NCBI GenBank assembly: GCA_016932385.1
Contig: JAFGCY010000083.1
Coordinates: forward strand, 1 to 38,902
Direction of reading: 5' to 3'
Source of the DNA: a bacterium
GTDB taxonomy: Bacteria > 4484-113 > JAFGCY01
Length of the DNA stretch: 38,902 bases
The notes under the pieces are model-generated. The model saw nothing but the letters and a program-made list of their open reading frames with translations. It had not been told where the DNA came from and ran no database searches. Position numbers and translations under genes: made by a program. Shown in pieces: positions 25,904 through 37,846 of the stretch (the first letter of the stretch is position 1; every line of letters starts with the position of its first letter).

Positions 25904-26458
25904 ATGAGATTTATGATTTTGGCCATTAGCCTGGCCATGTTGCTGTTCGCCAGCCCCGCGCTGGCGGAGGAAGCTGCGGACTTCAAGCTCGAAGATCTGA
26001 ACGGCGACGAGTATACGCTCGACGACCTGCTTGATGGCCAGAAGCTGCTGGTGATTGACTTTTGGCAGGTCGGCTGCAAGCCCTGCAACGAACTGGTTGC
26101 GCACCTGCAGGAGTTCTACGATGAATACCAGAAGGACGAGGCCGGCGTGGAGATCGTGATTATCAGTCGCGATACTACCCTGACCCTGCCGCAGGTGGCT
26201 CCGTTCTTCAATTCCCATGAATACACCTTCAAGGTGCTGCTGGACACCGAATTGGACGTCAGCGGCGATTACGGCGTCAAGGCGTCGCCGGTGACCTTCC
26301 TGATCGACAAGGACAAGCAGATCATCTGGCGGCATTTCAACTACAAGTCGGGCCAGGAGGAAGAGATTCGCGCGATGATCGACGCGTATCTGGCCGGTGA
26401 AGAGATTCCCGAAGAAGACAGTGAAGCCGCGGAAGAAGAGCCCGCGGAAGAGGAGTAG
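25904..26458 (+). CDS. TlpA/ResA-like thioredoxin-fold protein, exported
   Basis: The 184-residue protein has a signal peptide (cleavage near ALA/EE, residue 21) and a redoxin/TlpA-type thioredoxin fold with active site WQVGC58KPC61 and the cis-proline segment ASPVTFLIDKD. Such proteins reduce or oxidise disulfides outside the cytoplasm. The C-terminus is an unusual acidic tail of about 20 residues (EEDSEAAEEEPAEEE). GGAGG lies upstream of the ATG. It lies about 80 bp before the barrel gene and heads a redox cluster that continues with lipoproteins carrying a related fold. Confidence 0.88.
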   Translation: MRFMILAISLAMLLFASPALAEEAADFKLEDLNGDEYTLDDLLDGQKLLVIDFWQVGCKPCNELVAHLQEFYDEYQKDEAGVEIVIISRDTTLTLPQVAPFFNSHEYTFKVLLDTELDVSGDYGVKASPVTFLIDKDKQIIWRHFNYKSGQEEEIRAMIDAYLAGEEIPEEDSEAAEEEPAEEE

Positions 26459-26537
26459 GCTGGGGCGGCCGTCCCGTACGGATTGAATAGACAGGCGGTG
26501 GGATAGTCCGGAGATCAACTTGAGGAGGATGGTGGGC

Positions 26538-28157
26538 ATGAACCGGATGCTTACCTTGGCTGTGGCGCTCTGTACCGTGGCTTGCTGGCCGCTGGCGGCG
26601 CTGGCCGCCGATGAGGATTACGTCAGCGATTACGAGCAGGAGCTCAACGCTCTGTATCAGGCCTCGGGCGAATGCCCGTCAGAGGTCACATACGACGTTG
26701 ATCCGATCGAAGCCGCGGTGGCGCAGTTCTTCTACAATCTGGAAGAGACACCGGGCCGGTACCGTCCGGACCGCCCCAAGCGCAAGATTATCGACTTGGA
26801 CCGCAAGCCGTTGCCCCAGCTCAGCTACAGCGGGCAGATCTACGGCAAGTACAGCGACGACGACATCTCCGAGCTGGAAAAATGGGAAAAGGAACTGGAA
26901 CTCAAGCTGCGCTGGGGCGACTGGGATTCTTATTTCCGCTTCTCGGACGTCAATGCGTTCCATAACGAGGAGGATCCCTTCCGCTGGGAGAAAGGCCGTC
27001 TGCGCTGGCGCGGCGAGGACGCCACCGCAACACTGGGTTCCTTCGGCCAGCTGTTTGGCCGCGGCCTCGTGCTGAACATGTACGAGGACCGCATCCTGGA
27101 GCACGATAACGAGATTGAGGGCGCCAAGGTCGAATACGACCTGGGCGACGCCGAGTTGATTGCCTTGTGGGGTACGTGCAAGCAGCGCGACGAGCTGACG
27201 CATTCCACGGTCAGCGGCGCGCGGTTGTCCGGCGAGATCGCCCGAGGCGTGGATATCGGCGCTCATTTTGCCAACGTCGAGTTTCCGGCTGACACCTATA
27301 CTGTCGATGCCCCGGATATGTTCGACTACAGCCTGTACGGCGGTGATCTCACTGTGCGATCCGGCCCGGTTCGGTTATTCATTGAGTCGGCCCGGCTGGA
27401 ACGGGATCCCGCCGAATTCGCGGGCTCGATCATCGACCAGGAAGGTGACACCGGCAAGGCTGTTTATGCCAGCGTCAGCGTTGACGGTGATGGTTTCGTG
27501 GTTGGCGCCGAGTACAAGGACTACCGCGGGATGCTGCATCCATTCGGTGTAGCTCCGCCGATCAGGCGCTGGGGTGAAGCAGCGACTTCCGATCCGACCG
27601 ATGACAAAGGCTACGGCGTCTTCCTGACAATGAGCCCGTTCCAAGATGGTTCGAGCTTCGAATTCAGTTATGCGCAGGATAACCTGCATGCCAAGGGTTT
27701 GCTGAATTCAGAGTTTGCGGGAATATATTCCAGTCCAGCCACGCGCAAAACCAGCTGGGTCGCGGAATACTGGTATGTCAACCATCTTCTTACTAAGCAC
27801 AACATCAAGAAGGTGACGCTAAACCATCAGCTTAGTGATGACTGGACTTCAACGGCGATGGTCGAGCACGAGAAGATCGACCCGGGCTTCATTGACCAGT
27901 ACACGGACATGATTTACGAATTGGAGTTGGCATTTCAGAGCAAGGCCAATCTGGCTTACACGCTGGAGAAGACCGGCGAGGCAGAAGCCACCGATGACAG
28001 CTGGGGCATCTGGGAGTTCAAGTTCAAGCCCGACGACCGGCAGGAACTGAACGTCGCGTACGGTTCACGGCGCGAAGGAATTACATGCTCCGGAGGCGTT
28101 TGCCGTCTGGAGCCGGAGTTTGACGGAATAAAGGTGGATTACCTGATCAGGTTCTAA
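26538..28157 (+). CDS. Outer-membrane beta-barrel protein, DUF6029-like
   Basis: The 539-residue protein has a signal peptide (ending AALAAD) and an N-terminal periplasmic stretch. The remainder, from about residue 100, is alternating amphipathic strands (SYSGQIYGKYSDD, LKLRWGDWDSYFRFSD, ATLGSFGQLFGRGLVLNMY) ending in a terminal phenylalanine (VDYLIRF), the usual barrel-assembly signal. The FGRGLVL motif and a late Cys pair (CSGGVC) recall DUF6029-type barrels. I chose the ATG at 26538 because GAGGAGG stands 9 nt upstream; upstream in-frame starts lie in or next to that site. A terminator follows directly. Confidence 0.75.
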   Translation: MNRMLTLAVALCTVACWPLAALAADEDYVSDYEQELNALYQASGECPSEVTYDVDPIEAAVAQFFYNLEETPGRYRPDRPKRKIIDLDRKPLPQLSYSGQIYGKYSDDDISELEKWEKELELKLRWGDWDSYFRFSDVNAFHNEEDPFRWEKGRLRWRGEDATATLGSFGQLFGRGLVLNMYEDRILEHDNEIEGAKVEYDLGDAELIALWGTCKQRDELTHSTVSGARLSGEIARGVDIGAHFANVEFPADTYTVDAPDMFDYSLYGGDLTVRSGPVRLFIESARLERDPAEFAGSIIDQEGDTGKAVYASVSVDGDGFVVGAEYKDYRGMLHPFGVAPPIRRWGEAATSDPTDDKGYGVFLTMSPFQDGSSFEFSYAQDNLHAKGLLNSEFAGIYSSPATRKTSWVAEYWYVNHLLTKHNIKKVTLNHQLSDDWTSTAMVEHEKIDPGFIDQYTDMIYELELAFQSKANLAYTLEKTGEAEATDDSWGIWEFKFKPDDRQELNVAYGSRREGITCSGGVCRLEPEFDGIKVDYLIRF

Positions 28158-28177
28158 GCACTAATTACAGAATATCA

Positions 28178-28203
28178 AGGGCGGCGAGGGTCGCCCTTTT
28201 TTT
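28178..28203 (+). terminator. Rho-independent terminator after the barrel gene
   Basis: AGGGCG pairs with CGCCCT around an 8-nt loop, followed by seven T, starting 20 bp after the stop codon. It separates the TlpA/barrel pair from the lipoprotein genes. Confidence 0.8.
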
Positions 28204-28214
28204 ATGCATTGTAA

Positions 28215-28228
28215 TTCGGAAATACCGA
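28215..28228 (+). promoter_or_regulatory. Putative operator, copy 1 (TTCGGA-N2-TACCGA)
   Basis: TTCGGAAATACCGA, containing the inverted repeat TCGG-N5-CCGA, lies upstream of the Cys lipoprotein gene. It matches the element upstream of the first selenoprotein gene at 13 of 14 positions. It partly overlaps the palindrome at 28222-28243. Confidence 0.45.
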
Positions 28229-28243
28229 TACTAGTATCAGTAT
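28222..28243. repeat. Near-perfect 22-bp palindrome
   Basis: The core GATACTAGTATC is a perfect 12-bp palindrome. Symmetry extends to 22 bp with one mismatched pair. It sits in an AT-rich spacer between the barrel terminator and the Cys lipoprotein gene, and could be a regulator site. Confidence 0.55.
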
Positions 28244-28409
28244 ATGCCACTACATCTGTTATACTTATACATCGACAATGCCGATGCAATTGTTCCGCTA
28301 CAACGAACTGATATCAGATCGATAGCGGAAGGATGGCCGGGGAATCGCCGACGGAAGCGCCCAGGCGGCTTCTGCAAGTTGTAGTAAATATGACGGGTGG
28401 TGGCTTGAA

Positions 28410-30776
28410 ATGATGTCTCGATGTTGTACTGACGCTAGGCTGTACGCCGTAGCCGTCGCGGTGCTGGCGGCCGTCCTGATCACGGCCTGCGGCAGCAGTA
28501 ATGAAGGTACGTTGGCTTCGCCGGACCGCAATCCCAGCGACATGTTCACGGTCAGTGTGATTGATGGGCCCGGCACCTACGAGCCTCAGGTAGCGGTACG
28601 CGAAACCGCCGCTGAAGTCACCGTGACGGTTAACGCTACGAATGCCGAAAACCTGGCGGGAGCGTATTTCCATTTGCACTACGATCCGGCGCTCTTCACA
28701 CCCAAGGATGTCGAGTTTGGCGACCTGTTGGGCGATGAGGTTGTGACGCTGGCGTTGACGGAAATCAGCGAGATCGTGCCGGTCGGCGTAATGCAGATTG
28801 CCGCCCTGAATGAACCGGTATCCGGCAGCGGCGAGATCGCCACGGTAACATTCGCGCGCACTCCGTTTACCGGAGTCCGTAGTGTGTCGCAGTCACCCCA
28901 GGGCTCGGGCAATACCGTCGATGACCTGACGATTGTGGCGCAGAGCGATACGACAGCTACGTTGCGCTGGACCGAGAAGAACGCCGGCGATTACAACAAT
29001 GACAGCTTGGTCGGCGTATCCGACTTGACGCCGATCGGCATTAATTTCGGCAAGCAGGTGTCGGCTTCCAACGACCCGCTGAAAGTCGGCCTGTGCGATG
29101 GCAACAAAGACGATTACATCACGGTCGGCGATATTACGACGATCGGTCAGAACTTCGGCAACATGCTCAGCGGCTACAAGCTATACAAGGACGCCGACGG
29201 CAGCAATCCGTATTCCGACGGCCTCACCGCCATACGCGATAACTACGCTGATGATACGGATCATCCGATTATCTACACGTATGAGGCTTCGCGGCAGCCG
29301 GGCTTTGTTTCTTATACCGTGCGACCGGCCGCTGCCGATGATATCGCCAATCCAGGTCCGGTCTCGGAAGCCGCCGAGTTGAAGGACGACCCCGGCGCAC
29401 CGGAACCTCCCACTGATGTTACGGCCGTAAGTAGCGCGACAACGGGCCACCAGACGGTCAAGGTCAGTTGGACCGCCTCGACCAGCACGGATGTAGCCAG
29501 CTATGTGATCTCGCGCAAACTGGAAAGTGAATCCGATTGGGGTGAACCGATCGACATCGGCTCACTGACCTCGTACACGGACAATGACGACACGTTTTTG
29601 GAACAGCCGTATGTCTACCGTGTGTACGCCAAGGACTTTACCGACGCGGTCAGCTCATACGCGCTGTCCAATGCCGTCACGCCGTATTTCGTGGAAGGTC
29701 CGGATGCACCGACGAATGTGGTCGCGATCCAGGACTGCGGTACAGCTAACGCGATCCTGGTGCAATGGGATTCGCCGGCGGACATGACGGGCGTGATCGG
29801 CTTCCAGGTTTATCGCAAAGCGCCCGGCGAGACCAGCTTTTCCGCAGCCTTTTACAAGAGCAAGTACGACGAAGAGCATCTGGACACGGGCCTAACGAGC
29901 GGCGAGTACTATGAGTACTACCTGAAATCAGTGGGTTCCGAGGCGGATAGCGATCCATCGAACACCGCCGGCGCCTATCCCTGTGAGTACGTTCCGGAGA
30001 TCCATATCACCGGCCTGACGACGGACAAGACGACGCACTGTGGCGACGGCTCGGACGGCGTGGTATCCAATCTGGCGGTCACGACCGACGAGACACCGAC
30101 CAGCGTGGAGTGGACCGCGACAGCCGGCACGATCAACGGTTCCGGCAGCACGGCCACCTGGGAGCCCGGCACGAGCCTGACGGCCCAGAAGGTGACCGTG
30201 ACCTGTACCGCGCATCTCGACACCGCCCAGGATACGCAGACGATCAACCTGTACGTTACAGCGGAGAAAATCAAGTCGCCCACGAGCGGGACCAACAGCT
30301 TCATTGATTTCAACGACTTGACCTTAATGGAGCCCTTGGCGGACGGTGGCGCCGTCGTGGATAACCGGCCTCTGTCCTATTACATCAACGGTAAAAATGT
30401 CGTGCTGTTCAATCTCTTCGGCATCTGGTGCTACTACTGCAAGCTTGAGCTGCCGGACTTCCATGACTGGATGGGTGAGTATGGCAACGAGGATTTCTAC
30501 ATTGTGATCGACTCCGATGACAGCACTTCGGAAATGGTCACGTATTTGAACAATCCGCAGTTTGGTACCGGGCCGTTTAACCGGTTCCACGTTTATTGCC
30601 GGGATGGAGCGGCGCACGGAAATTATTGGACCAAGTACGGAAAGACGACGGGCTATCCACATAATGTCCTGTTCGACCGTGATGGGTATATCCGTAAGTG
30701 GAAGACCGGTGCCATTCTGGATGACAACGTGCAGCTTTGGGAAGACTCATTCAAGGAGTTACTCGGCGTAGAATAG
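28410..30776 (+). CDS. Lipoprotein: cohesin, dockerin, FN3 x2, Ig and thioredoxin fold (Cys form)
   Basis: The 788-residue protein has a lipobox (LITAC, Cys27). A cohesin-like domain follows at about 45-155 (LAGAYFHLHYDPALF ... GSGEIATVTF), then two dockerin-like calcium loops at about 190-255 (GDYNNDSLVGVSDLTPIG and GNKDDYITVGDITTIG). Two FN3 domains lie at about 330-525, an Ig-like domain at about 530-625, and a TlpA-like thioredoxin fold from about 640. The active site is IWC674YYC677, with cis-Pro region GYPHNVLFDRDG. It is the ordinary-cysteine member of a family whose next two members have TGA at the position of Cys674. GGGTGGTGG precedes a double ATG; either could be used. It should be surface- or periplasm-exposed. 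Cotranscription with the next gene is unlikely because a strong terminator intervenes. Confidence 0.85.
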   Translation: MMSRCCTDARLYAVAVAVLAAVLITACGSSNEGTLASPDRNPSDMFTVSVIDGPGTYEPQVAVRETAAEVTVTVNATNAENLAGAYFHLHYDPALFTPKDVEFGDLLGDEVVTLALTEISEIVPVGVMQIAALNEPVSGSGEIATVTFARTPFTGVRSVSQSPQGSGNTVDDLTIVAQSDTTATLRWTEKNAGDYNNDSLVGVSDLTPIGINFGKQVSASNDPLKVGLCDGNKDDYITVGDITTIGQNFGNMLSGYKLYKDADGSNPYSDGLTAIRDNYADDTDHPIIYTYEASRQPGFVSYTVRPAAADDIANPGPVSEAAELKDDPGAPEPPTDVTAVSSATTGHQTVKVSWTASTSTDVASYVISRKLESESDWGEPIDIGSLTSYTDNDDTFLEQPYVYRVYAKDFTDAVSSYALSNAVTPYFVEGPDAPTNVVAIQDCGTANAILVQWDSPADMTGVIGFQVYRKAPGETSFSAAFYKSKYDEEHLDTGLTSGEYYEYYLKSVGSEADSDPSNTAGAYPCEYVPEIHITGLTTDKTTHCGDGSDGVVSNLAVTTDETPTSVEWTATAGTINGSGSTATWEPGTSLTAQKVTVTCTAHLDTAQDTQTINLYVTAEKIKSPTSGTNSFIDFNDLTLMEPLADGGAVVDNRPLSYYINGKNVVLFNLFGIWCYYCKLELPDFHDWMGEYGNEDFYIVIDSDDSTSEMVTYLNNPQFGTGPFNRFHVYCRDGAAHGNYWTKYGKTTGYPHNVLFDRDGYIRKWKTGAILDDNVQLWEDSFKELLGVE

Positions 30777-30805
30777 GCCAGACAGAAGCCAGGCAACGAA
30801 TAAGT

Positions 30806-30835
30806 GGATCCCGGCACCCAGCCGGGATCCTTTTT
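30806..30835 (+). terminator. Rho-independent terminator after the Cys lipoprotein
   Basis: A perfect 10-bp stem (GGATCCCGGC/GCCGGGATCC) with a 5-nt loop is followed by five T, 29 bp after the stop codon. Confidence 0.9.
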
Positions 30836-30851
30836 CATGCCGAATTATACG

Positions 30852-30865
30852 TTCGGATATACCGA
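30852..30865 (+). promoter_or_regulatory. Putative operator, copy 2 (TTCGGA-N2-TACCGA)
   Basis: TTCGGATATACCGA, 146 bp upstream of the start of the first selenoprotein gene. The surrounding bases also form CCGAA-N7-TTCGG and repeat CCGAATTATA twice, giving three alternating half-sites. Confidence 0.45.
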
Positions 30866-30997
30866 ATTATATATACCTATATTTACTGCAATCCGAATCT
30901 TGTGGTAGATTATAGTGACGGAGGAATCCATACCTAACGGGGTATCGCATGTATGGTCCTCCCGCTCGATGTCAATTACTCTGGGTGGTGGCGATAA

Positions 30998-33319
30998 ATG
31001 AAGCTTATTCACAACCGGCGATGTATGGGCTGGCTGGTGGTACTACTGCTGGCTGTCCTCATCAGTGCTTGCGGAACAACCAACTCTGGCGTGCTGGACA
31101 TTCCGGAGCGCGATGCCAGCACAGTGTTCTCGGTCAGCGTGATCGACGGCCCGGGCACCTACAGCCCGCAACTCAGTATGGTGGAAACCGCTACTGAGGT
31201 GGCCGTCACTGTCAGCGCAGAAAACGCCGAAGAACTATCCGGAGCGTATTTCCACTTGAACTACGACGGCGCGGAGTACACGCCCAAGAACGTCGAATAC
31301 GGCGATCTGCTGGGTGAGAATGTCGTGACGTTGTCGCTGACTGACGTGCCCGGGTATGTTCCGGTCGGAGTCATGCAGATCGTGGAAAAAAGCGTGCCGG
31401 TGTGCGGAAGCGGTGAACTGGCGACGGTGACTTTCGCGAAAAGCCCCTTTGTGGGCACGCGGACAATCTCGCAATCCCCGCAGGGCAATGCAAACGTTGT
31501 CGAAGATCTGACGATCATCGCGCAGACAGACACAACGGCCACCCTGCGCTGGACCGAGAAGAACGCCGGCGATTACAACAATGACAGCCTGGTCGGCGTC
31601 TCCGACCTGACGCCGATCGGGATCAACTTCGGCAAGCAGGTATCGACGTCCAGCGATCCGTTGAAAGTTGGCCTGTGCGACGGCAACAAAGACGATTACA
31701 TCACGGTCGGCGATATTACGACGATCGGCCAGAACTTCGGAAATATGCTGAGCGGTTACAAGCTATATAAGGATGCCGACGGGACCAACCCGTATTCCGA
31801 CGGTATCAGCGCCAACCGCGATGGCTATGATGATGACCTGAACCACCCGGTCATCTACACCTTCGAGGCATCACGATCACCCGGCTTCGTCGCCTATACC
31901 GTGCGACCGGTGGCATCCGACGACATCGCCAATCCGGGCCCGGTCTCCTCAGTGGCCGAGTTGAAGGACGATCCGGGCGCACCGGAACCGCCGACGGACG
32001 TGACGGCGGTGAGTAATTCAACCACAGGACACCAGACGGTCAAGGTAACCTGGACCGCTTCGACGAGTACGGATGTTGCCAGCTACATTATTTCTCGCAA
32101 ACTTGCGGCGGACGCTGACTGGGGCGAACCGATCGACATCGGCTCGCTGACGTCCTACACGGACAATGACGACACGTTTGTCGAACAGCCCTACGTGTAC
32201 CGCTTGTACGCGAAGGACTTCTCGGGAGCGTTTAGTACGTACGCGCTGTCCAACGAGGTTACTCCATACTTCGTGGAAGGACCGGATGCGCCGACCAACG
32301 TGGCAGCGATCCAGGACTGCGGTACAGCTAACGCGATTCTGGTGCAATGGGATCCGCCGGCGGACATGACGGGCGTGATCGGCTTCCAGGTTTATCGCAA
32401 AGCGCCCGGTGAGACTGCGTTTTCCGAGTTGGTCTACAAGAGCAAGTACGACGAAGAGCACATGGACTCGGGTCTGACCAGCGGCGAGTATTACGAGTAC
32501 TATCTGAAGTCGGTTGGTTCCGAGGCGGACAGCGATCCGTCGAACACCGCCGGTGCCTACCCCTGTGAGTACGTACCGGAGATCCATATCACCGGCTTGA
32601 CCACTGACAAGTCTACCCATTGCGGTAACGGTTCAGACGGTGTGGTCTCCAACCTGACGGTGACAACGGACGAAACGCCGACCAGTGTTGATTGGTCCGC
32701 GACAGCAGGCTCCATCGTTGGTAATGGCAGCACGGCTACCTGGGAACCAAGCGCTTCGCTGGAACCGCAAGTGGTCACCGTTACCTGCACTGCTCATAAC
32801 GACACGGCTTCAGACTCCGCCACGCTGGACCTGTATGTCACCGACGCGACTTGGCTGACGAACTTGGGTACAGATGGCTATTTCATTGATTTCAACCTGG
32901 AGTGCTTGGAGGCTCTTGCGATCAGCGGCGACATCATCACCAGCCGCGATTTCTCATTCTATGCAGATGGCAAGCACGTGATCATCTTCGAAAGATGGGA
33001 GCGAACTTGAGGCAGCTGTTTGTCCGAGATGCCGGACTTAAATACAGCGGCGAGTAATTACGAGAGCAACGGTCTGTATATAGTAATGAATTCCAGTTCC
33101 ACGGATAACACCTGGACTAAGGATCACTTTACACAGAACAGCTACGACTATCTGCATAATTTCAAGGGCGATATCCGCACAGCGGTGTGGAATCACTATG
33201 ACTATCCCGGCAGTATTCCTTACAAGGTACTGCTCGATCGCGACGGCAATTTACGCTGGAACGGTCACTGGTACAGCCTGGTTCAGACCTACATGAAGGA
33301 ATGTCTGGGCGTTTCGTGA
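30998..33319 (+). CDS. Putative selenoprotein lipoprotein with UxxC thioredoxin fold (in-frame TGA)
   Basis: Read through one TGA (33008-33010), the frame encodes 773 residues and ends at TGA 33317-33319. The layout equals the preceding gene: lipobox ISAC (Cys25), cohesin-like, two dockerin-like loops, two FN3 domains, Ig-like domain, thioredoxin fold. The TGA is codon 671, in WERT-U-GSC, and aligns with the first cysteine of the CYYC site in the Cys paralogue. The following 102 residues complete the thioredoxin fold, including the cis-Pro segment GSIPYKVLLDRDG, and have no start codon or ribosome site of their own at the right place. A hairpin follows the TGA (33022-33037). Without recoding the protein would stop exactly at its active site. 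Selenocysteine insertion is inferred; selA, selB and selC are not in the window. Confidence 0.8.
33008..33037 (+). promoter_or_regulatory. Putative selenocysteine codon and bacterial SECIS hairpin (first selenoprotein)
   Basis: TGA at 33008-33010 is followed by stem GTCCG (33022-33026), loop AGATGC and CGGAC (33033-33037). The apical loop begins after exactly 16 nt and has G among its first two bases. This agrees with the general bacterial SECIS description of a short stem, small loop with an early G, and UGA-to-loop distance of about 16-37 nt. Confidence 0.65.
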
Positions 33320-33337
33320 GATCATAGTGCTTGAGGA

Positions 33338-33370
33338 CAGCGGGATTCTGTGGATGCAGGATCCCGCTGT
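33338..33370 (+). terminator. Hairpin after the first selenoprotein gene
   Basis: ACAGCGGGAT pairs with ATCCCGCTGT (10 bp) around a 13-nt loop, 18 bp after the stop codon. The T-tract is poor (TTCTACAT), so termination may be weak. The rest of 33320-33556 holds a degenerate operator-like TTCGGAGAAACC at 33381 and a leader duplicated before the third complete lipoprotein gene. Confidence 0.45.
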
Positions 33371-33478
33371 TCTACATACATTCGGAGAAACCAGCAGCTT
33401 AAGGCGTCCGACTACCTGGCGGAGGACCGCAGGCATTGGCAGTGCGGTTTGTGGGACCTTTTGCGTGGTGACTAGCAA

Positions 33479-33579
33479 GGTACCCATGAGGGTATCTGAT
33501 AATGGGGAATCACCGGCTGGATGGCTGACAGAGACCAACGATCATTGGGCGGTTGCATGAAAAACCTAGTAGTGCTGTT
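33479..33579 (+). repeat. Leader and gene-start duplication, copy 1
   Basis: About 100 bp, including a GGTACCC-ATGA-GGGTATC hairpin, a GGGCGG ribosome-site region and the first signal-peptide codons (MKNLVVL). It is nearly identical to 34396-34496, the leader and start of the third complete lipoprotein. This copy has a 1-nt deletion in the signal peptide. Confidence 0.85.
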
Positions 33580-34256
33580 AAAGCAGCCGTGTTGAGCGGC
33601 GTACTATCGTAATCGACTCCGACGACAGCACGTCAACGATGGTTACCTACCTGAGCAACCCGCAGAACGGCGATGAGCCCGCTGGACCTGTTCCAGGTTT
33701 ACTGCCGCACTGGGGCGACCAAGGGCACGTACTGGACCAGTTATGGTCAGACCAGCGGCGAGTATTACGAGTACTATCTGAAGTCGGTTGGTTCCGCGGC
33801 AGACAGCGATCCGTCGAACACCGCCGGTGCCTACCCCTGTGAGGCGGAACCGTGATTCCCGCGAATCTGACTGGTCGAGCGCTGTCGTATTACGTTAACG
33901 AGAACAACGTTGTGATTCACGGATAATTCCGAACTGGTTGACCTGGCTGTGTAGCGGATTTACCGCAATACGATGACTATATTGTCGAGTACAGTTCTTA
34001 TGGATTCTACATTGTGCTGTTCGACCCGTCAGACACGAGGGAATATCTCACGCCCTGGCTGAATGACCGCGGATACGATAAGTTCCACATGTACTTCGGG
34101 CGACCGTATTCAACCTATCTAGACGAGTTGGGCTGCAACGACTACGTGCCTTATAGCGTTGTTTACGACCGCGATGGTTATATCCGAATGATCGATGATC
34201 CGACCGCCGTTTGGCCGCGCGTAATCGAGCAGTGCCTTGGACTTTACGAGCCGTAA
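33557..34256 (+). pseudogene. Mosaic broken copy of the redox lipoprotein, with TGA-Pro-Gly-Cys
   Basis: The locus is a patchwork of family pieces. It has a signal-peptide start (MKNLVVL) with a frameshift, then a thioredoxin-fold piece like the Cys paralogue (IVIDSDDSTS, then QVYCRTGATKGTYWTSYG after another frameshift). This is joined at a shared Thr-Ser-Gly to an FN3 piece almost identical to 32476-32572 (SGEYYEYYLKSVGS). A second, nearly complete thioredoxin domain (33843-34256) follows in one frame, interrupted by TAA (33924-33926) and TGA (33939-33941). The TGA lies in RTG-U-PGC at the active-site position. The end (VIEQCLGLYEP) and a perfect terminator are intact. The TAA makes it a pseudogene as a lipoprotein. 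Part of it seems recently functional. Confidence 0.8.
33939..33966 (+). promoter_or_regulatory. Putative Sec codon and SECIS-like hairpin in the broken copy
   Basis: TGA 33939-33941 is followed by GCGG (33954-33957), loop ATTTA and CCGC (33963-33966). The loop again begins after exactly 16 nt. The loop lacks the early G unless the closing G-C pair opens, so it may be decaying. Confidence 0.45.
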
Positions 34257-34277
34257 GCTTGTATCGCAGGACAGAGA

Positions 34278-34304
34278 AGCCCCCGCTACGGCGGGGGCTT
34301 TTTT
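34278..34304 (+). terminator. Rho-independent terminator after the broken copy
   Basis: AGCCCCCGC pairs with GCGGGGGCT around loop TACG, followed by six T, 21 bp after the stop. The stem core is the same as that of the terminator after the next gene. Confidence 0.92.
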
Positions 34305-34325
34305 GGAAAAGCCGATTGCACAAAT

Positions 34326-34339
34326 AGGAAGTATCGATA
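34326..34339 (+). promoter_or_regulatory. Putative operator, degenerate copy
   Basis: AGGAAGTATCGATA matches 11 of 14 bases of the corresponding window in copy 1 (CGGAAATACCGATA). It lies 148 bp before its gene, against 146 bp for copy 2. Confidence 0.3.
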
Positions 34340-34395
34340 ATTATTTCGCGACGCTTGAACTAGAATGTGTTAGTTTATTAAGTAGTCGTGAACCA

Positions 34396-34496
34396 GGTAC
34401 CCATCAGGGTATCTGATAATGGGGAATCACCGGCTGGATGGCCGACAGAGACCAACTATCATTGGGTGGTAGTATGAAAAATCTAGTAGTGCTGTT
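34396..34496 (+). repeat. Leader and gene-start duplication, copy 2
   Basis: The hairpin GGTACCC-ATCA-GGGTATC (34396-34413) is followed by a conserved leader, GGGTGGT and the first codons of the second selenoprotein. The alternative pairing ATCAG-GGTAT-CTGAT overlaps the first hairpin and excludes it. That alternative is lost in copy 1. Confidence 0.8.
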
Positions 34497-36807
34497 TAGC
34501 GCAGCCGTGTTGAGCAGCTTGTTGCTGGTGGCCTGCGCCACGCAGAACGGCGGAGTGAATGTCGTCCCCGAGCGGGATGCCAGCGCCGCGTTCAGTGTAG
34601 AAGCCGTGGAAGGGCAGGGCACGTTCGTTCCGGAGTATACCGTTGAAAATACCGCCAAGGGTGTGGCCGTACAGATTAACGCGCGACAGGCCGCAGACCT
34701 GGCGGCGGCCTATGTACACCTCTACTACGATCCAGCGGGCTATACCCCCGTTGATGTCGAGTTCGGGGATTTCCTGGGCGGTGCGTCTGAAACCGTCACG
34801 ATCGACCTGGTCGATATCGACGGCTTAGTGCCGCTGGGCATTGCCCAGATCACCTCGTCGGGAGTAAAGCCCGCCACGGGCGCCGGCGAGCTGGCGACCG
34901 TCTATTTCAAGGCGGAGCCCAGTGCGACCAGTCGAGCTGTATCCGCGGCGCCCCGGGGTGAGTACAACAAGGTTACCGACCTATCGATCCTGGACCAGAC
35001 CACCGAGGAAGTGACGTTGCGCTGGACCGAGGTCCACATCGGCGACTACAACAACGATGGCCTGGTCACGGTCAACGACCTGACGCCGATCGGCCAGAAC
35101 TTCGGTGTATCCGTCGCTTCTGCCAGCGACCCGCTGAAGGTCGGTCTGGTGGACGGCAACAAGGACGGTCAGATTACCGTGAACGACATCACGCAGATCG
35201 GCCAGAATTTCGGCAGCGCGCTGAACGGCTATTGGCTGTATCTCGACACGACCGGTACCAATGCCTACGAATCCGGGATCAGCGCTTTCCGCACCGACTT
35301 CGACGACGATATGAACCATCCGCTGATCTACACCTACACCGCCGATATCAGCGGGCAAGATGTGTCGGCGTACACCGTCCGGCCGGCCGAGACTGGCGTT
35401 ACGCCCATGCCTGAGACGCTGTCCGATCCAGCGATCGGCTCGGTGCCGGGCCCGCCGGATCCGCCGACGGATGTGACGGTGGAGAGCGACGAGGACAGCG
35501 GACACCAGACGGTGTTGGTGGAATGGACACGCTCGACTTCCGTCGACGTGGCCAGTTACTTCATCGAGCGCAAGATGACGAGCGAGGATGATTCGGCCTG
35601 GGCCGAGCGCGGACAGGTTGGTTCCGCCGCGGATTCCTACAGCGATTTCGACGCCAGTTTCAGCGAAGCGGACAGCTACGACTACCGCGTCAAGGCCGTC
35701 GACACGACCGAGCTGTCGAGCGACTGGGTCGAAGCCGGTCCGGTCACGCCTTACATCGAGGTGGGCCCGCCGCCGCCGACCAACATCATCGCCGATAACA
35801 CCGTGCATTCGCCGCGCTCGATCGATGTCCAATGGACGCCGCCGGCTGACGAAAGCAAAGTATCTTTCTACCGGGTTTACCGCCAGGGACCGGGCGATGC
35901 GCAGTTCAACAGCGTGTTCGACAGTCCCAACAAGTACACCGAAAACTATCTCGATACCGAGCTGACGGCCGGCGAGACCTATACCTACTATGTGGTTTCG
36001 GTGAACAACCACATGGCGGAAGGTGACCCGTCCGCGACCGCCGGGGCCACACCGAGCACGTACGAGCCGCAGGTAACCATTACCGGCCTGACCACGGACA
36101 AGACTACGCATTACTTCGTGATGGGTGGCGACGGTGTCTCTTCCAATATCACTGTGACCACGGACGATCCGCCGACCAGCTACGAGTGGAACTCGACCCA
36201 GGGCGCGGTCTCCGGAACGGGTGCCACGGTAACCTGGATTCCGGGCGCCGACTCCACGGGCGTGGGCACGGTGGAGATCTCCGTGACCGTCCACAATTAC
36301 GACGCCAGCGATTCGGCTTCGCTGACGCTGTACCTGGTCGACAAGCCGATTCAGACCACGATGGGCAACGGCGGACATTATATAAACTTCACCGGCGACT
36401 GCCAGAACGCGATCGTTGAAGGTGGAACGGAGACTACGCGCTCGTTATCGGATTTCGCTACGCAAGACCATGTGATCCTCCTGGATCGATGGGAGAGCAG
36501 TTGAGGCACCTGCGTGGCGGAGATTCCGTCGTTAGAAACGAAAGCAAGCAACTACTACGCTGACGGCCTGCGCTTGATCGGTTGCACCGGATCAACCAGC
36601 AACACCTGGGTGAAGAGCTTCTTCACGTCCAATAACCATACGCACCTGTACAACTTCGATGGCAACGTACACAGCTCGTTCTGGTATTCGACGAACTACA
36701 CGGGTGTCGAGCCCTGGAAGATCTTCCTGGACCGGGATGGCAATATTCGCCTGGCCGCCGGTTCCGGCAACTTCGATCCGATTATCGAGCAGTGCCTGGG
36801 CCTCTAG
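34474..36807 (+). CDS. Second putative selenoprotein lipoprotein with UxxC thioredoxin fold (in-frame TGA)
   Basis: Read through TGA 36502-36504, the frame encodes 777 residues and ends at TAG 36805-36807. Order: lipobox LLVAC (Cys21); cohesin-like domain (LAAAYVHLYYDPAGY ... GAGELATVYF); dockerin-like loops GDYNNDGLVTVNDLTPIG and GNKDGQITVNDITQIG, closer to consensus than in the sister genes; two FN3 domains; Ig-like domain; thioredoxin fold. The TGA is codon 677, in WESS-U-GTC, with the cis-Pro segment GVEPWKIFLDRDG downstream; 100 residues follow it. The ATG at 34474 is chosen because GGGTGGT stands just before it and the lipobox follows at the right distance; an upstream ATG at 34438 would give a signal peptide with extra residues. 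Selenocysteine is inferred. Confidence 0.8.
36502..36530 (+). promoter_or_regulatory. Putative selenocysteine codon and bacterial SECIS hairpin (second selenoprotein)
   Basis: TGA 36502-36504 is followed by GGCGG (36516-36520), loop AGATT and CCGTC (36526-36530). The loop starts after exactly 16 nt and begins AGAT, as in the first selenoprotein. The stem bases differ from that copy, yet pairing is kept (one G-U). Confidence 0.65.
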
Positions 36808-36827
36808 CCTTGGCTTAAGCTGACCAG

Positions 36828-36856
36828 AAAAGCCCCCGCTCCAAGCGGGGGCTTTT
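36828..36856 (+). terminator. Strong terminator after the second selenoprotein gene
   Basis: A 13-bp stem (AAAAGCCCCCGCT/AGCGGGGGCTTTT) with a 3-nt loop. It could act on both strands. Confidence 0.9.
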
Positions 36857-36911
36857 ACTTGCCGGATATCGGTTATATCGCGGCTAAAACCTGGAGCACT
36901 GGGGACAGTTT

Positions 36912-36919
36912 GCCGATAA
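36912..36919 (+). promoter_or_regulatory. Flagellar sigma28-type -10 box before fliS
   Basis: GCCGATAA, identical to the enterobacterial FliA -10 consensus, lies 20 bp before the fliS ATG. The matching TAAA -35 is not at the usual distance; a TAAA occurs 23 nt upstream instead of 15. The call rests on the -10 and the context. Confidence 0.45.
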
Positions 36920-36939
36920 ACTACTTGTACGGAGGGCGC

Positions 36940-37428
36940 ATGGCCAACGATTTGTACCGCCAGTACAGGGAAACCGCCGTTACCCAGGCTGATCCGATCA
37001 AGCTCGTCGAGATGCTCTACGAGGGCGCGATCAAGTTCATGCGCATGGGGCAAAAGGCGATCGCGGATGGCGACCCGGAGACGGCGCATAACAACATTCT
37101 GCGCGCGTATGCCATCGTCGCCGAGTTGATGGCCACGTTGGACTTCGACGAAGGCGGCGAGATTGCCACGCGGCTGGAGCAGTGCTACGACTATACCCTG
37201 CATCTGCTGAAGGAAGCCAACATCAAGAAAGACGGTGAGCTGCTGGATCAAGCGGTACAGATGATCGAGCCGCTGTTGGCGTCCTGGAAAACGGCCTTCA
37301 AGAACGGCGTTCCTGGTTCGGCGGCAGACGACGGCATGGATGAAGAACACCCGGATGAAGCCAAGGCGGAACAGCAGCAAACCGAGAGGCCGAAGCGCGA
37401 CCACAAACCGCTGGACCTGGTGGGGTAG
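36940..37428 (+). CDS. fliS: Flagellar export chaperone FliS
   Basis: FliS binds the C-terminus of flagellin in the cytoplasm and prevents early polymerisation. The 162-residue protein begins with the typical YRQYRETAVTQADPIKLVEMLYEGAIKFM and continues as a helical bundle (AHNNILRAYAIVAELMATL, GEIATRLEQCYDYTLHLL). It carries an extra charged C-terminal tail of about 35 residues (DEEHPDEAKAEQQQTERPKRDHK) not usual for the family. The ATG at 36940 is preferred over upstream frame starts because GGAGG lies 4 nt before it and the family N-terminus begins there. Confidence 0.93.
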   Translation: MANDLYRQYRETAVTQADPIKLVEMLYEGAIKFMRMGQKAIADGDPETAHNNILRAYAIVAELMATLDFDEGGEIATRLEQCYDYTLHLLKEANIKKDGELLDQAVQMIEPLLASWKTAFKNGVPGSAADDGMDEEHPDEAKAEQQQTERPKRDHKPLDLVG

Positions 37429-37432
37429 GGTA

Positions 37433-37846
37433 ATGGACCAGCTCTACGCCAAGGGGGACTTGAACACAGGTCACGGCAGCCGCGCAGAGGATTCGCTGAA
37501 GATCCAGCTGGACCGGATCGAAACGGTTCAGGGCAGGATCCGGCAAGTTGTCACGGACGAGTCACTCACCGAGCTGGAGGCCTTGGTCAGCGAATTCGGT
37601 TCGCGGATCGGTACCGTCCGGGCTTTGATCGAGCAGCATCCGGCAATCAGAACGGCGGAGGATCTGGCCCGCCTGCAGGAGATCCTGATCGTCCAACGCG
37701 AACTGGAGCGGTTGATCGAATTCCAGTTGACGGCGATGGGCCAGCGACTCGGGAATATCAGGTCCGCGCGGAATATCAACAAGACCTACAATGCGGCCGA
37801 GCCGAAGAACGCCGGCCCGCTGTTACGCCGCGACATCCTCGGCTAG
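37433..37846 (+). CDS. Putative flagellar chaperone (FliT/FlgN-like)
   Basis: The 137-residue protein starts 4 bp after the fliS stop, with GGTGGGGTAGGG as ribosome site, so the two are almost certainly cotranscribed. It is nearly all helical (SLKIQLDRIETVQGRIRQVV, LARLQEILIVQRELERLIEF). It ends in a short tail with NINKTYNAAEPK and LLRRDILG, similar in style to the FlgN/FliT C-terminus that follows the coiled coil. No catalytic motif is seen. Position and fold favour a flagellar export chaperone, but the specific family is not certain. Confidence 0.6.
   Translation: MDQLYAKGDLNTGHGSRAEDSLKIQLDRIETVQGRIRQVVTDESLTELEALVSEFGSRIGTVRALIEQHPAIRTAEDLARLQEILIVQRELERLIEFQLTAMGQRLGNIRSARNINKTYNAAEPKNAGPLLRRDILG

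What the first reader, a model, noticed from the sequence alone, without database searches (positions are those of the whole stretch)
30998..33319. In-frame TGA replaces the active-site cysteine of a lipoprotein thioredoxin domain (U-G-S-C)
The frame before TGA 33008 and the frame after it are the same. The part after it completes the thioredoxin fold seen in the Cys paralogue (cis-Pro segment, DRDG, C-terminal helix). The TGA aligns with Cys674 of the paralogue and forms U-x-x-C. A stop exactly at the catalytic residue would make a protein without an active site. Recoding as selenocysteine explains all of this and would give a lipid-anchored selenoprotein with cohesin and dockerin modules, an architecture I do not know from described selenoproteins.
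Basis: partly seen in the sequence, partly recalled or inferred. Interest (0 to 1): 0.97.

Follow-up and report, generated by a model that had tools for sequence, protein, structure and literature searches.

The report
Lipid-anchored selenocysteine thioredoxin in uncultured bacteria
Two neighbouring genes of an uncultured bacterium very probably read a stop codon as the rare amino acid selenocysteine exactly where a redox enzyme needs its active atom, giving a membrane-anchored selenium protein with an unusual, cellulosome-like set of extra domains.

Summary
ORF 30998-33319 has one in-frame TGA (33008-33010) at the first position of a UGSC thioredoxin motif; 102 further codons complete the domain. 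A second paralogue in the window (34438-36807) has TGA at the same site (36502-36504, UGTC), as has a decayed copy between them (UPGC). Copies in five other genomes of the same small phylum carry TGA there too (UTYC, UPYC, UGGC, UGYC, one CUSFP); six copies have Cys. The Sec/Cys label changes at least three times on the tree. The genome has selD-selA-selB-tRNA-Sec in one cluster; its SelD is itself a TGA protein. A hairpin with its loop 16-20 nt after the TGA is the best one in 7 of 7 intact Sec copies, 0 of 5 tested Cys copies and 11 of 100 random coding sites; this support is moderate. The catalytic domain is ResA/TlpA-like, a known kind of UxxC selenoprotein. New is the architecture: lipoprotein, cohesin- and dockerin-like modules, FN3/Ig-like domains, Sec-thioredoxin. 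The literature searches named found none like it. Selenium in the protein, partners and substrate are not shown.

The parts
30998..33319 (+). Gene A: lipoprotein with cohesin-like, dockerin-like, FN3, Ig-like and thioredoxin domains; Sec codon inside; ends with TGA 33317-33319
33008..33010 (+). Sec codon TGA (residue 671) of U-G-S-C in gene A
33022..33037 (+). SECIS-like hairpin core GUCCG|AGAUGC|CGGAC, loop 16 nt after the TGA
34438..36807 (+). Gene C: paralogue with the same architecture and its own Sec codon; ATG 34474 is a likelier start by eye; ends with TAG 36805-36807
36502..36504 (+). Sec codon TGA of U-G-T-C in gene C
36515..36531 (+). SECIS-like hairpin UGGCGGA|GAU|UCCGUCG, loop 17 nt after the TGA
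28410..30776 (+). Gene B: Cys paralogue (C-Y-Y-C, Cys674), same architecture
33867..34256 (+). Decayed thioredoxin-domain copy with TGA 33939-33941 at the matching site (U-P-G-C) and a TAA 33924-33926
25904..26458 (+). Upstream TlpA/ResA-like protein (CxxC); same order of genes in G001 and G002
26520..28157 (+). DUF6029 protein between the TlpA-like gene and genes B-A-C; same order of genes in G001 and G002

Best explanation
Genes A and C encode lipid-anchored, extracytoplasmic selenoproteins. SelB with Sec-tRNA(Sec) decodes the in-frame UGA, helped by the hairpin just after it, so that the C-terminal ResA/TlpA-like thioredoxin domain carries a Sec-x-x-Cys redox pair instead of Cys-x-x-Cys. 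Inferred: the selenol attacks a disulfide (or another oxidised group) of an envelope substrate, the resolving Cys releases it, and a membrane carrier of the DsbD/CcdA kind or the neighbouring TlpA-like protein re-reduces it; the cohesin/dockerin/FN3 part positions the module outside the cell. Shown by sequence: UGA at the catalytic position in copies of six genomes, Sec machinery in the same genome, Sec/Cys exchange, thioredoxin domain. Inferred: Sec incorporation in vivo, redox direction, partners, location.
For: Internal TGA and continuing domain; second Sec paralogue; TGA in the same column in G001, G004, G005, G006, G009, Cys in B, G002, G003, G004 (two copies) and G009b; 7 of 7 intact Sec copies are open for 100-114 codons after the TGA; coding-type substitutions after the TGA, A against C 49/25/63 mismatches at positions 1/2/3 in 97 codons; Sec/Cys labels change 5 times on a 13-row tree, at least 3 forced by well-supported branches; selD-selA-selB-tRNA-Sec cluster; SelD found in 8 of 10 phylum genomes, each of the 8 with one internal TGA (its position read only in G000); best hairpin with loop 16-20 nt after the codon in 7 of 7 Sec, 0 of 5 tested Cys and 11 of 100 random in-frame sites; thioredoxin fold with thiol-disulfide oxidoreductases (ResA, TlpA, Etrx among them) nearest; DsbD-type membrane protein in the genome.
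Against: No protein or selenium data. The loose published hairpin rule is not diagnostic here: 54 of 100 random coding sites pass it, as do Cys copies B and G002, while Sec copies C (-6.2) and G009 (-5.8) miss its -7.5 limit and the decayed copy has no such hairpin. With codon resampling 4 of 7 Sec hairpins are below P 0.05 (A itself 0.059), and so are 2 of 5 Cys copies. The G004 Sec copy lacks the resolving Cys (CUSFP). tRNA-Sec was not found in G005 and G006 (only 150 of 255 and 224 candidates were scored) and selD not in G006. The DsbD family was not found in G006 and is below its cut-off in G004, both Sec genomes.
Confidence: 0.9

Rival explanations
1. The TGA is a true stop (truncation or pseudogene), and the downstream part is a relic.
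For: A decayed copy with TGA and TAA does lie between genes A and C, so copies do die here; gene A and 2 of 21 other window genes end in TGA.
Against: The same TGA in 7 otherwise open copies of 6 genomes with 100-114 downstream codons, conserved P and D-x-D-G positions and coding-type substitutions.
Confidence: 0.03
2. TGA is a sense codon here through another route: a changed genetic code or near-cognate readthrough without selenium.
For: TGA is rare as a stop in the window: 2 of the 21 genes counted.
Against: TGA still ends genes; the exchange partner is Cys at the catalytic position; full Sec machinery is present; SelD has a TGA as well. Not tested genome-wide.
Confidence: 0.04
3. Assembly or sequencing error turned a Cys codon into TGA.
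For: Metagenome assemblies; no reads were seen.
Against: Assemblies from five genera show TGA at the same codon, and two diverged paralogues in this window do so.
Confidence: 0.01
4. The protein is a selenoprotein, but the Sec-thioredoxin reduces peroxides or other oxidants rather than exchanging thiols with envelope proteins.
For: AhpC-TSA and Redoxin models match the domain too; GPX4 and peroxiredoxin structures appear among the fold matches.
Against: UxxC motif, and the best solved relatives are thiol-disulfide oxidoreductases.
Confidence: 0.25

Closest known systems
Thiol-disulfide isomerase-like UxxC selenoprotein (Thioredoxin_8 / cd02966) and Prx-like thiol:disulfide oxidoreductase UxxC (PF00578), as listed in PMC9312934 and PMC13188914 (passages and table parts seen)
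   Same: Sec in place of the first active-site Cys of a TlpA-like thioredoxin domain; A matches Thioredoxin_8 just above its cut-off (27.7 against 27)
   Different: They are listed by domain and motif only; the word lipoprotein does not occur in either main text; complete members here are about 700-800 residues with cohesin/dockerin-like and FN3 modules
ResA / TlpA / DsbE and pneumococcal Etrx1/Etrx2 lipoprotein thioredoxins
   Same: Thioredoxin domain, lipid anchor in Etrx; among the nearest solved relatives
   Different: Cys-x-x-Cys there (recalled); far below the NCBIfam cut-off for ResA (21 against 170 bits); large N-terminal modular part here
Cellulosomal cohesin and dockerin proteins
   Same: Cohesin by Pfam in B, C and G001 and by fold match of a low-confidence model; dockerin-like double repeat
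   Different: Both modules in one lipid-anchored chain; no glycoside hydrolase domain over cut-off in the proteins scanned; dockerin below cut-off

Membership tests
Bacterial selenoprotein | In-frame UGA at a position where homologues have Cys | tested here: met
Bacterial selenoprotein | selA, selB, selC, selD in the genome | tested here: met
Bacterial selenoprotein | bSECIS hairpin after the UGA (3-9 nt loop with G in its first two positions, 16-37 nt spacing, MFE at most -7.5; rule read in PMC13188914) | tested here: inconclusive
   A passes (-14.9, 16 nt), C does not reach -7.5 (-6.2); 54 of 100 random sites pass too, 11 of 100 with the loop at 16-20 nt
Bacterial selenoprotein | Selenium in the protein | not testable with these tools
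   needs mass spectrometry or 75Se
ResA/TlpA-like thioredoxin | Thioredoxin fold with active-site pair | tested here: met
   model pLDDT 75, Foldseek best E 2.4e-6 with TM-scores about 0.5-0.65; profile E 5.4e-15 to a ResA chain
ResA (NCBIfam NF002854) | Score over curated cut-off | tested here: not met
   21 against 170 bits for A
Curated families of NCBIfam, selenoproteins included | Score over a curated cut-off | tested here: not met
   6 proteins scanned, none over any cut-off; the one Sec-named family listed is SelL-related, 19.4 against 120
Cohesin (PF00963) | Score over gathering cut-off | tested here: inconclusive
   B 31.8, C 29.1, G001 30.8 over 24.1; A 19.6 below; not listed for G002, G004b, G006 or G009
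Dockerin type I (PF00404) | Score over gathering cut-off | tested here: not met
   C 17.8 and G001 14.0 against 22.9, not listed for the other 6 proteins scanned; profile against PDB dockerins E 2.7e-4
Lipoprotein | N-terminal signal with lipobox Cys | tested here: inconclusive
   read by eye in A, B, C, G001, G002, G004b, G006, G009 and G009b; no predictor run; G003, G004a, G004c and G005 are cut at contig ends

The most novel reading that the evidence does not exclude
This lineage wires selenium into a cell-surface, cellulosome-like network: the many cohesin/dockerin-like regions of the genome (76 matches to protein A outside this locus, most over that part) provide docking, and the Sec-thioredoxin lipoproteins plug a fast, reversible redox centre into it, with Sec and Cys copies kept side by side as tools of different redox reach.
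Probability: 0.15. Interest if true: 0.75.

Novelty: new variant of a known kind. Interest (0 to 1): 0.58.

Why it matters
It adds a well-supported, multi-domain, lipid-anchored member to the bacterial selenoproteome from a little-known lineage. Sec and Cys copies sit side by side in one locus here and in G009, and the copy behind the same TlpA-like and DUF6029 genes is Sec in G001 and Cys in G002. That is a natural experiment on why Sec is kept or lost. An annotation that stops at the TGA loses the catalytic half of such proteins.

Tried and rejected
Truncation, changed code and assembly error were considered and rejected (see rivals). The loose bSECIS rule was tried as a test and dropped as such, because 54 of 100 random coding sites pass it; I rely on the restricted spacing and on codon resampling. 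The -5.8 limit of the restricted count is that of the weakest Sec copy, so set after seeing the data; at the published -7.5 limit it is 5 of 7 Sec against 11 of 100. Rfam found nothing at gathering level in 28000-37500. The tRNA-Sec gathering score is lax: G008 and G011, without a selA match, exceed it, as do 5 of 14 control genomes (some of which may truly have it), so only the eight hits over 66 bits are counted. The N-terminal structure model is poor (pLDDT 50), so its cohesin matches are only suggestive. A taxonomy look-up for UBP7 gave nothing. The record that matches G002 is titled UBP7, but PMC11382960 (one passage seen) gives UBP7 genomes of 0.83-1.39 Mb, which does not fit 3.7 Mb, so I leave the phylum unnamed. 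The hairpin tests were not done for G009b or for the short Sec thioredoxins. The order of neighbours seen in G001 and G002 is not that of G006 or G009; it was not examined in G003, G004 and G005.

Full report
What is there. The window is contig C112 of a 3.70 Mb, 113-contig, 89.9% complete assembly. ORF A (30998-33319) has a single internal TGA at 33008-33010, residue 671, in ERT-U-GSC; 102 more codons follow before the terminal TGA at 33317-33319. Its neighbour B (28410-30776, C-Y-Y-C, Cys674) is 66% identical to A over the C-terminal 441 residues and has no internal stop; C is 45% identical. C (34438-36807) has TGA 36502-36504 in ESS-U-GTC, 100 more codons and a TAG stop. Between A and C lies a decayed copy with TGA at the matching place (U-P-G-C), also interrupted by a TAA; a 102-nt direct repeat (33478-33579 and 34395-34496, 93%) points to duplication.

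Homologues. A three-sequence profile was searched in 144 genomes: 32 had a match at E 1e-8 or better. Eight of the 32 are of this phylum; the rows of the other 24 cover only a thioredoxin or an FN3 stretch and have no internal stop. A search of the 10 genomes of the phylum that are held (400 asked for) followed. Sec (TGA) copies: A and C here, G001 (UTYC), one G004 copy (CUSFP, no resolving Cys), G005 (UGGC), G006 (UPYC), G009 (UGYC). Cys copies: B, G002, G003 and one G004 copy (CGPC), another G004 copy (CQGC), G009b (CGWC). These were read directly; in the 12-row alignment each TGA falls in the column of the first catalytic Cys (G009b and the decayed copy were not in it). Several members (G003, G004a, G004c, G005) are cut at contig ends, so their N-terminal part is unseen; a G007 member is cut before the thioredoxin domain. 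In G008 only short stretches matched. In G001 and G002 the single long gene follows a TlpA-like and a DUF6029 gene, as B-A-C do in the window; it is Sec in G001 and Cys in G002. G006 and G009 have other neighbours. On a 13-row tree the Sec/Cys label changes 5 times, at least 3 forced by starred branches; G009b is a long branch.

Machinery. selD, selA, selB and tRNA-Sec lie together on C41, and SelD has one TGA, in U-A-A-K, the UxxK listed for SelD in PMC9312934 and PMC13188914. Of 13 genomes searched selA is over its cut-off in 10, including all 6 genomes with a Sec copy. selB is over its cut-off in 8 of 13; in G004 and G005 it is just below. A tRNA-Sec over 66 bits is in 8 of 13, not in G005 or G006, where only 150 of 255 and of 224 candidates were scored. 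SelD is in 8 of 10 phylum genomes at E 1e-40, each with one TGA; it is missing in G006 (77% complete) and G008. G008 has no selA match either.

Hairpin. The bSECIS rule of PMC13188914 (section read) was applied with ViennaRNA. In 7 of 7 intact Sec copies the best hairpin has its loop 16-20 nt after the TGA, at -5.8 to -14.9 kcal/mol; in 5 of 5 tested Cys copies it does not (two have none; B at 33 nt, G004b at 29, G002 at 37); 11 of 100 random in-frame window sites do. The -5.8 limit is that of the weakest Sec copy; at -7.5 the count is 5 of 7 Sec against 11 of 100. SelD has a hairpin at 16 nt (-14.3); the decayed copy has none. Without the position limit 54 of 100 random sites reach -7.5. Resampling synonymous codons, with the loop allowed 14-21 nt from the codon, gave P 0.059 (A), 0.013 (C), 0.2255 (G001), 0.0015 (G004c), 0.004 (G005), 0.006 (G006), 0.225 (G009), combined 1e-6; the Cys copies gave 1 (B), 0.0465 (G002), 0.0095 (G003), 1 and 1 (G004), combined 0.12. 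The two low Cys values have loops at 14-15 nt and may be relics of a Sec ancestor, which is a guess. Related copies are not independent, so the combined value is optimistic.

Domains. Pfam shows cohesin (over cut-off in B, C, G001), FN3 (A, B, C, G002, G004b), thioredoxin-like models, and a sub-threshold dockerin. Positions 159-230 of the N-terminal profile find four dockerin-bearing cellulosomal chains in the PDB (E 2.7e-4 to 6.1e-3); the poor N-terminal model (pLDDT 50) finds cohesins first. The thioredoxin model (pLDDT 75, pTM 0.75) matches thiol-disulfide oxidoreductases, ResA and Etrx among them, and its profile finds Etrx2, ResA and TlpA chains. A search of the own genome with protein A gave 81 matches, 5 of them in this locus; most of the rest cover the cohesin-dockerin part.

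How it probably works. Shown by sequence: conservation of a TGA/Cys site, Sec machinery, fold. Inferred: a lipid-anchored module whose selenol starts thiol-disulfide exchange outside the cytoplasm. A DsbD-type protein (C35, 49.9 bits against 27.1) is a candidate electron donor; the family was over cut-off in 8 of 10 phylum genomes, below it in G004 and not found in G006, so it is not a constant companion. The substrate is unknown.

Known or new. PMC9312934 (passages seen) and PMC13188914 (abstract and outline, section 5, passages, part 2 of 3 of section 7) list thioredoxin-like UxxC selenoproteins of several domain types, so the catalytic kind is known. Searches of the paper library: selenoprotein + thioredoxin + cohesin + dockerin, 0 papers; selenoprotein + dockerin, 1 paper on carbohydrate-active enzymes, passages seen; selenoprotein + lipoprotein + TlpA + selenocysteine, 0; selenocysteine + FN3 + thioredoxin + metagenome-assembled genomes, 0; UBP7 + selenocysteine, 1 on immunopeptides by its listing; at least four of cohesin, dockerin, thioredoxin, lipoprotein, selenium, 6 papers, none about such a protein by its listing. 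The library holds only part of the literature.

Noticed in passing
L134 (G002:C54:184152-184493), L135 (G001:C11:1236-1667), L136 (G003:C205:8907-9326): A second, shorter Sec-thioredoxin lipoprotein-like family (WADWUGYC, WAEWUGAC, WADWUGPC) beside Cys copies; G002 and G003, whose long copy has Cys, have TGA here.
   Followed up: partly
window, 21 genes chosen by me: Stop codon use is lopsided: 15 TAG, 4 TAA, 2 TGA.
   Followed up: no
G000, 76 matches outside C112: Very many cohesin/dockerin-like regions in one genome, far beyond the Sec family.
   Followed up: no
window 33478-34496: A 102-nt direct repeat and a mosaic decayed copy between genes A and C: the locus seems to grow and decay by duplication.
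   Followed up: partly
L078 2809-4644 (G004:C14): TGA copy with CUSFP: Cys and Sec adjacent and no resolving Cys.
   Followed up: no
G000:C41:6064-6963: SelD is itself a TGA protein (UAAK), and SelD has one TGA in each of the 8 phylum genomes where it was found.
   Followed up: yes
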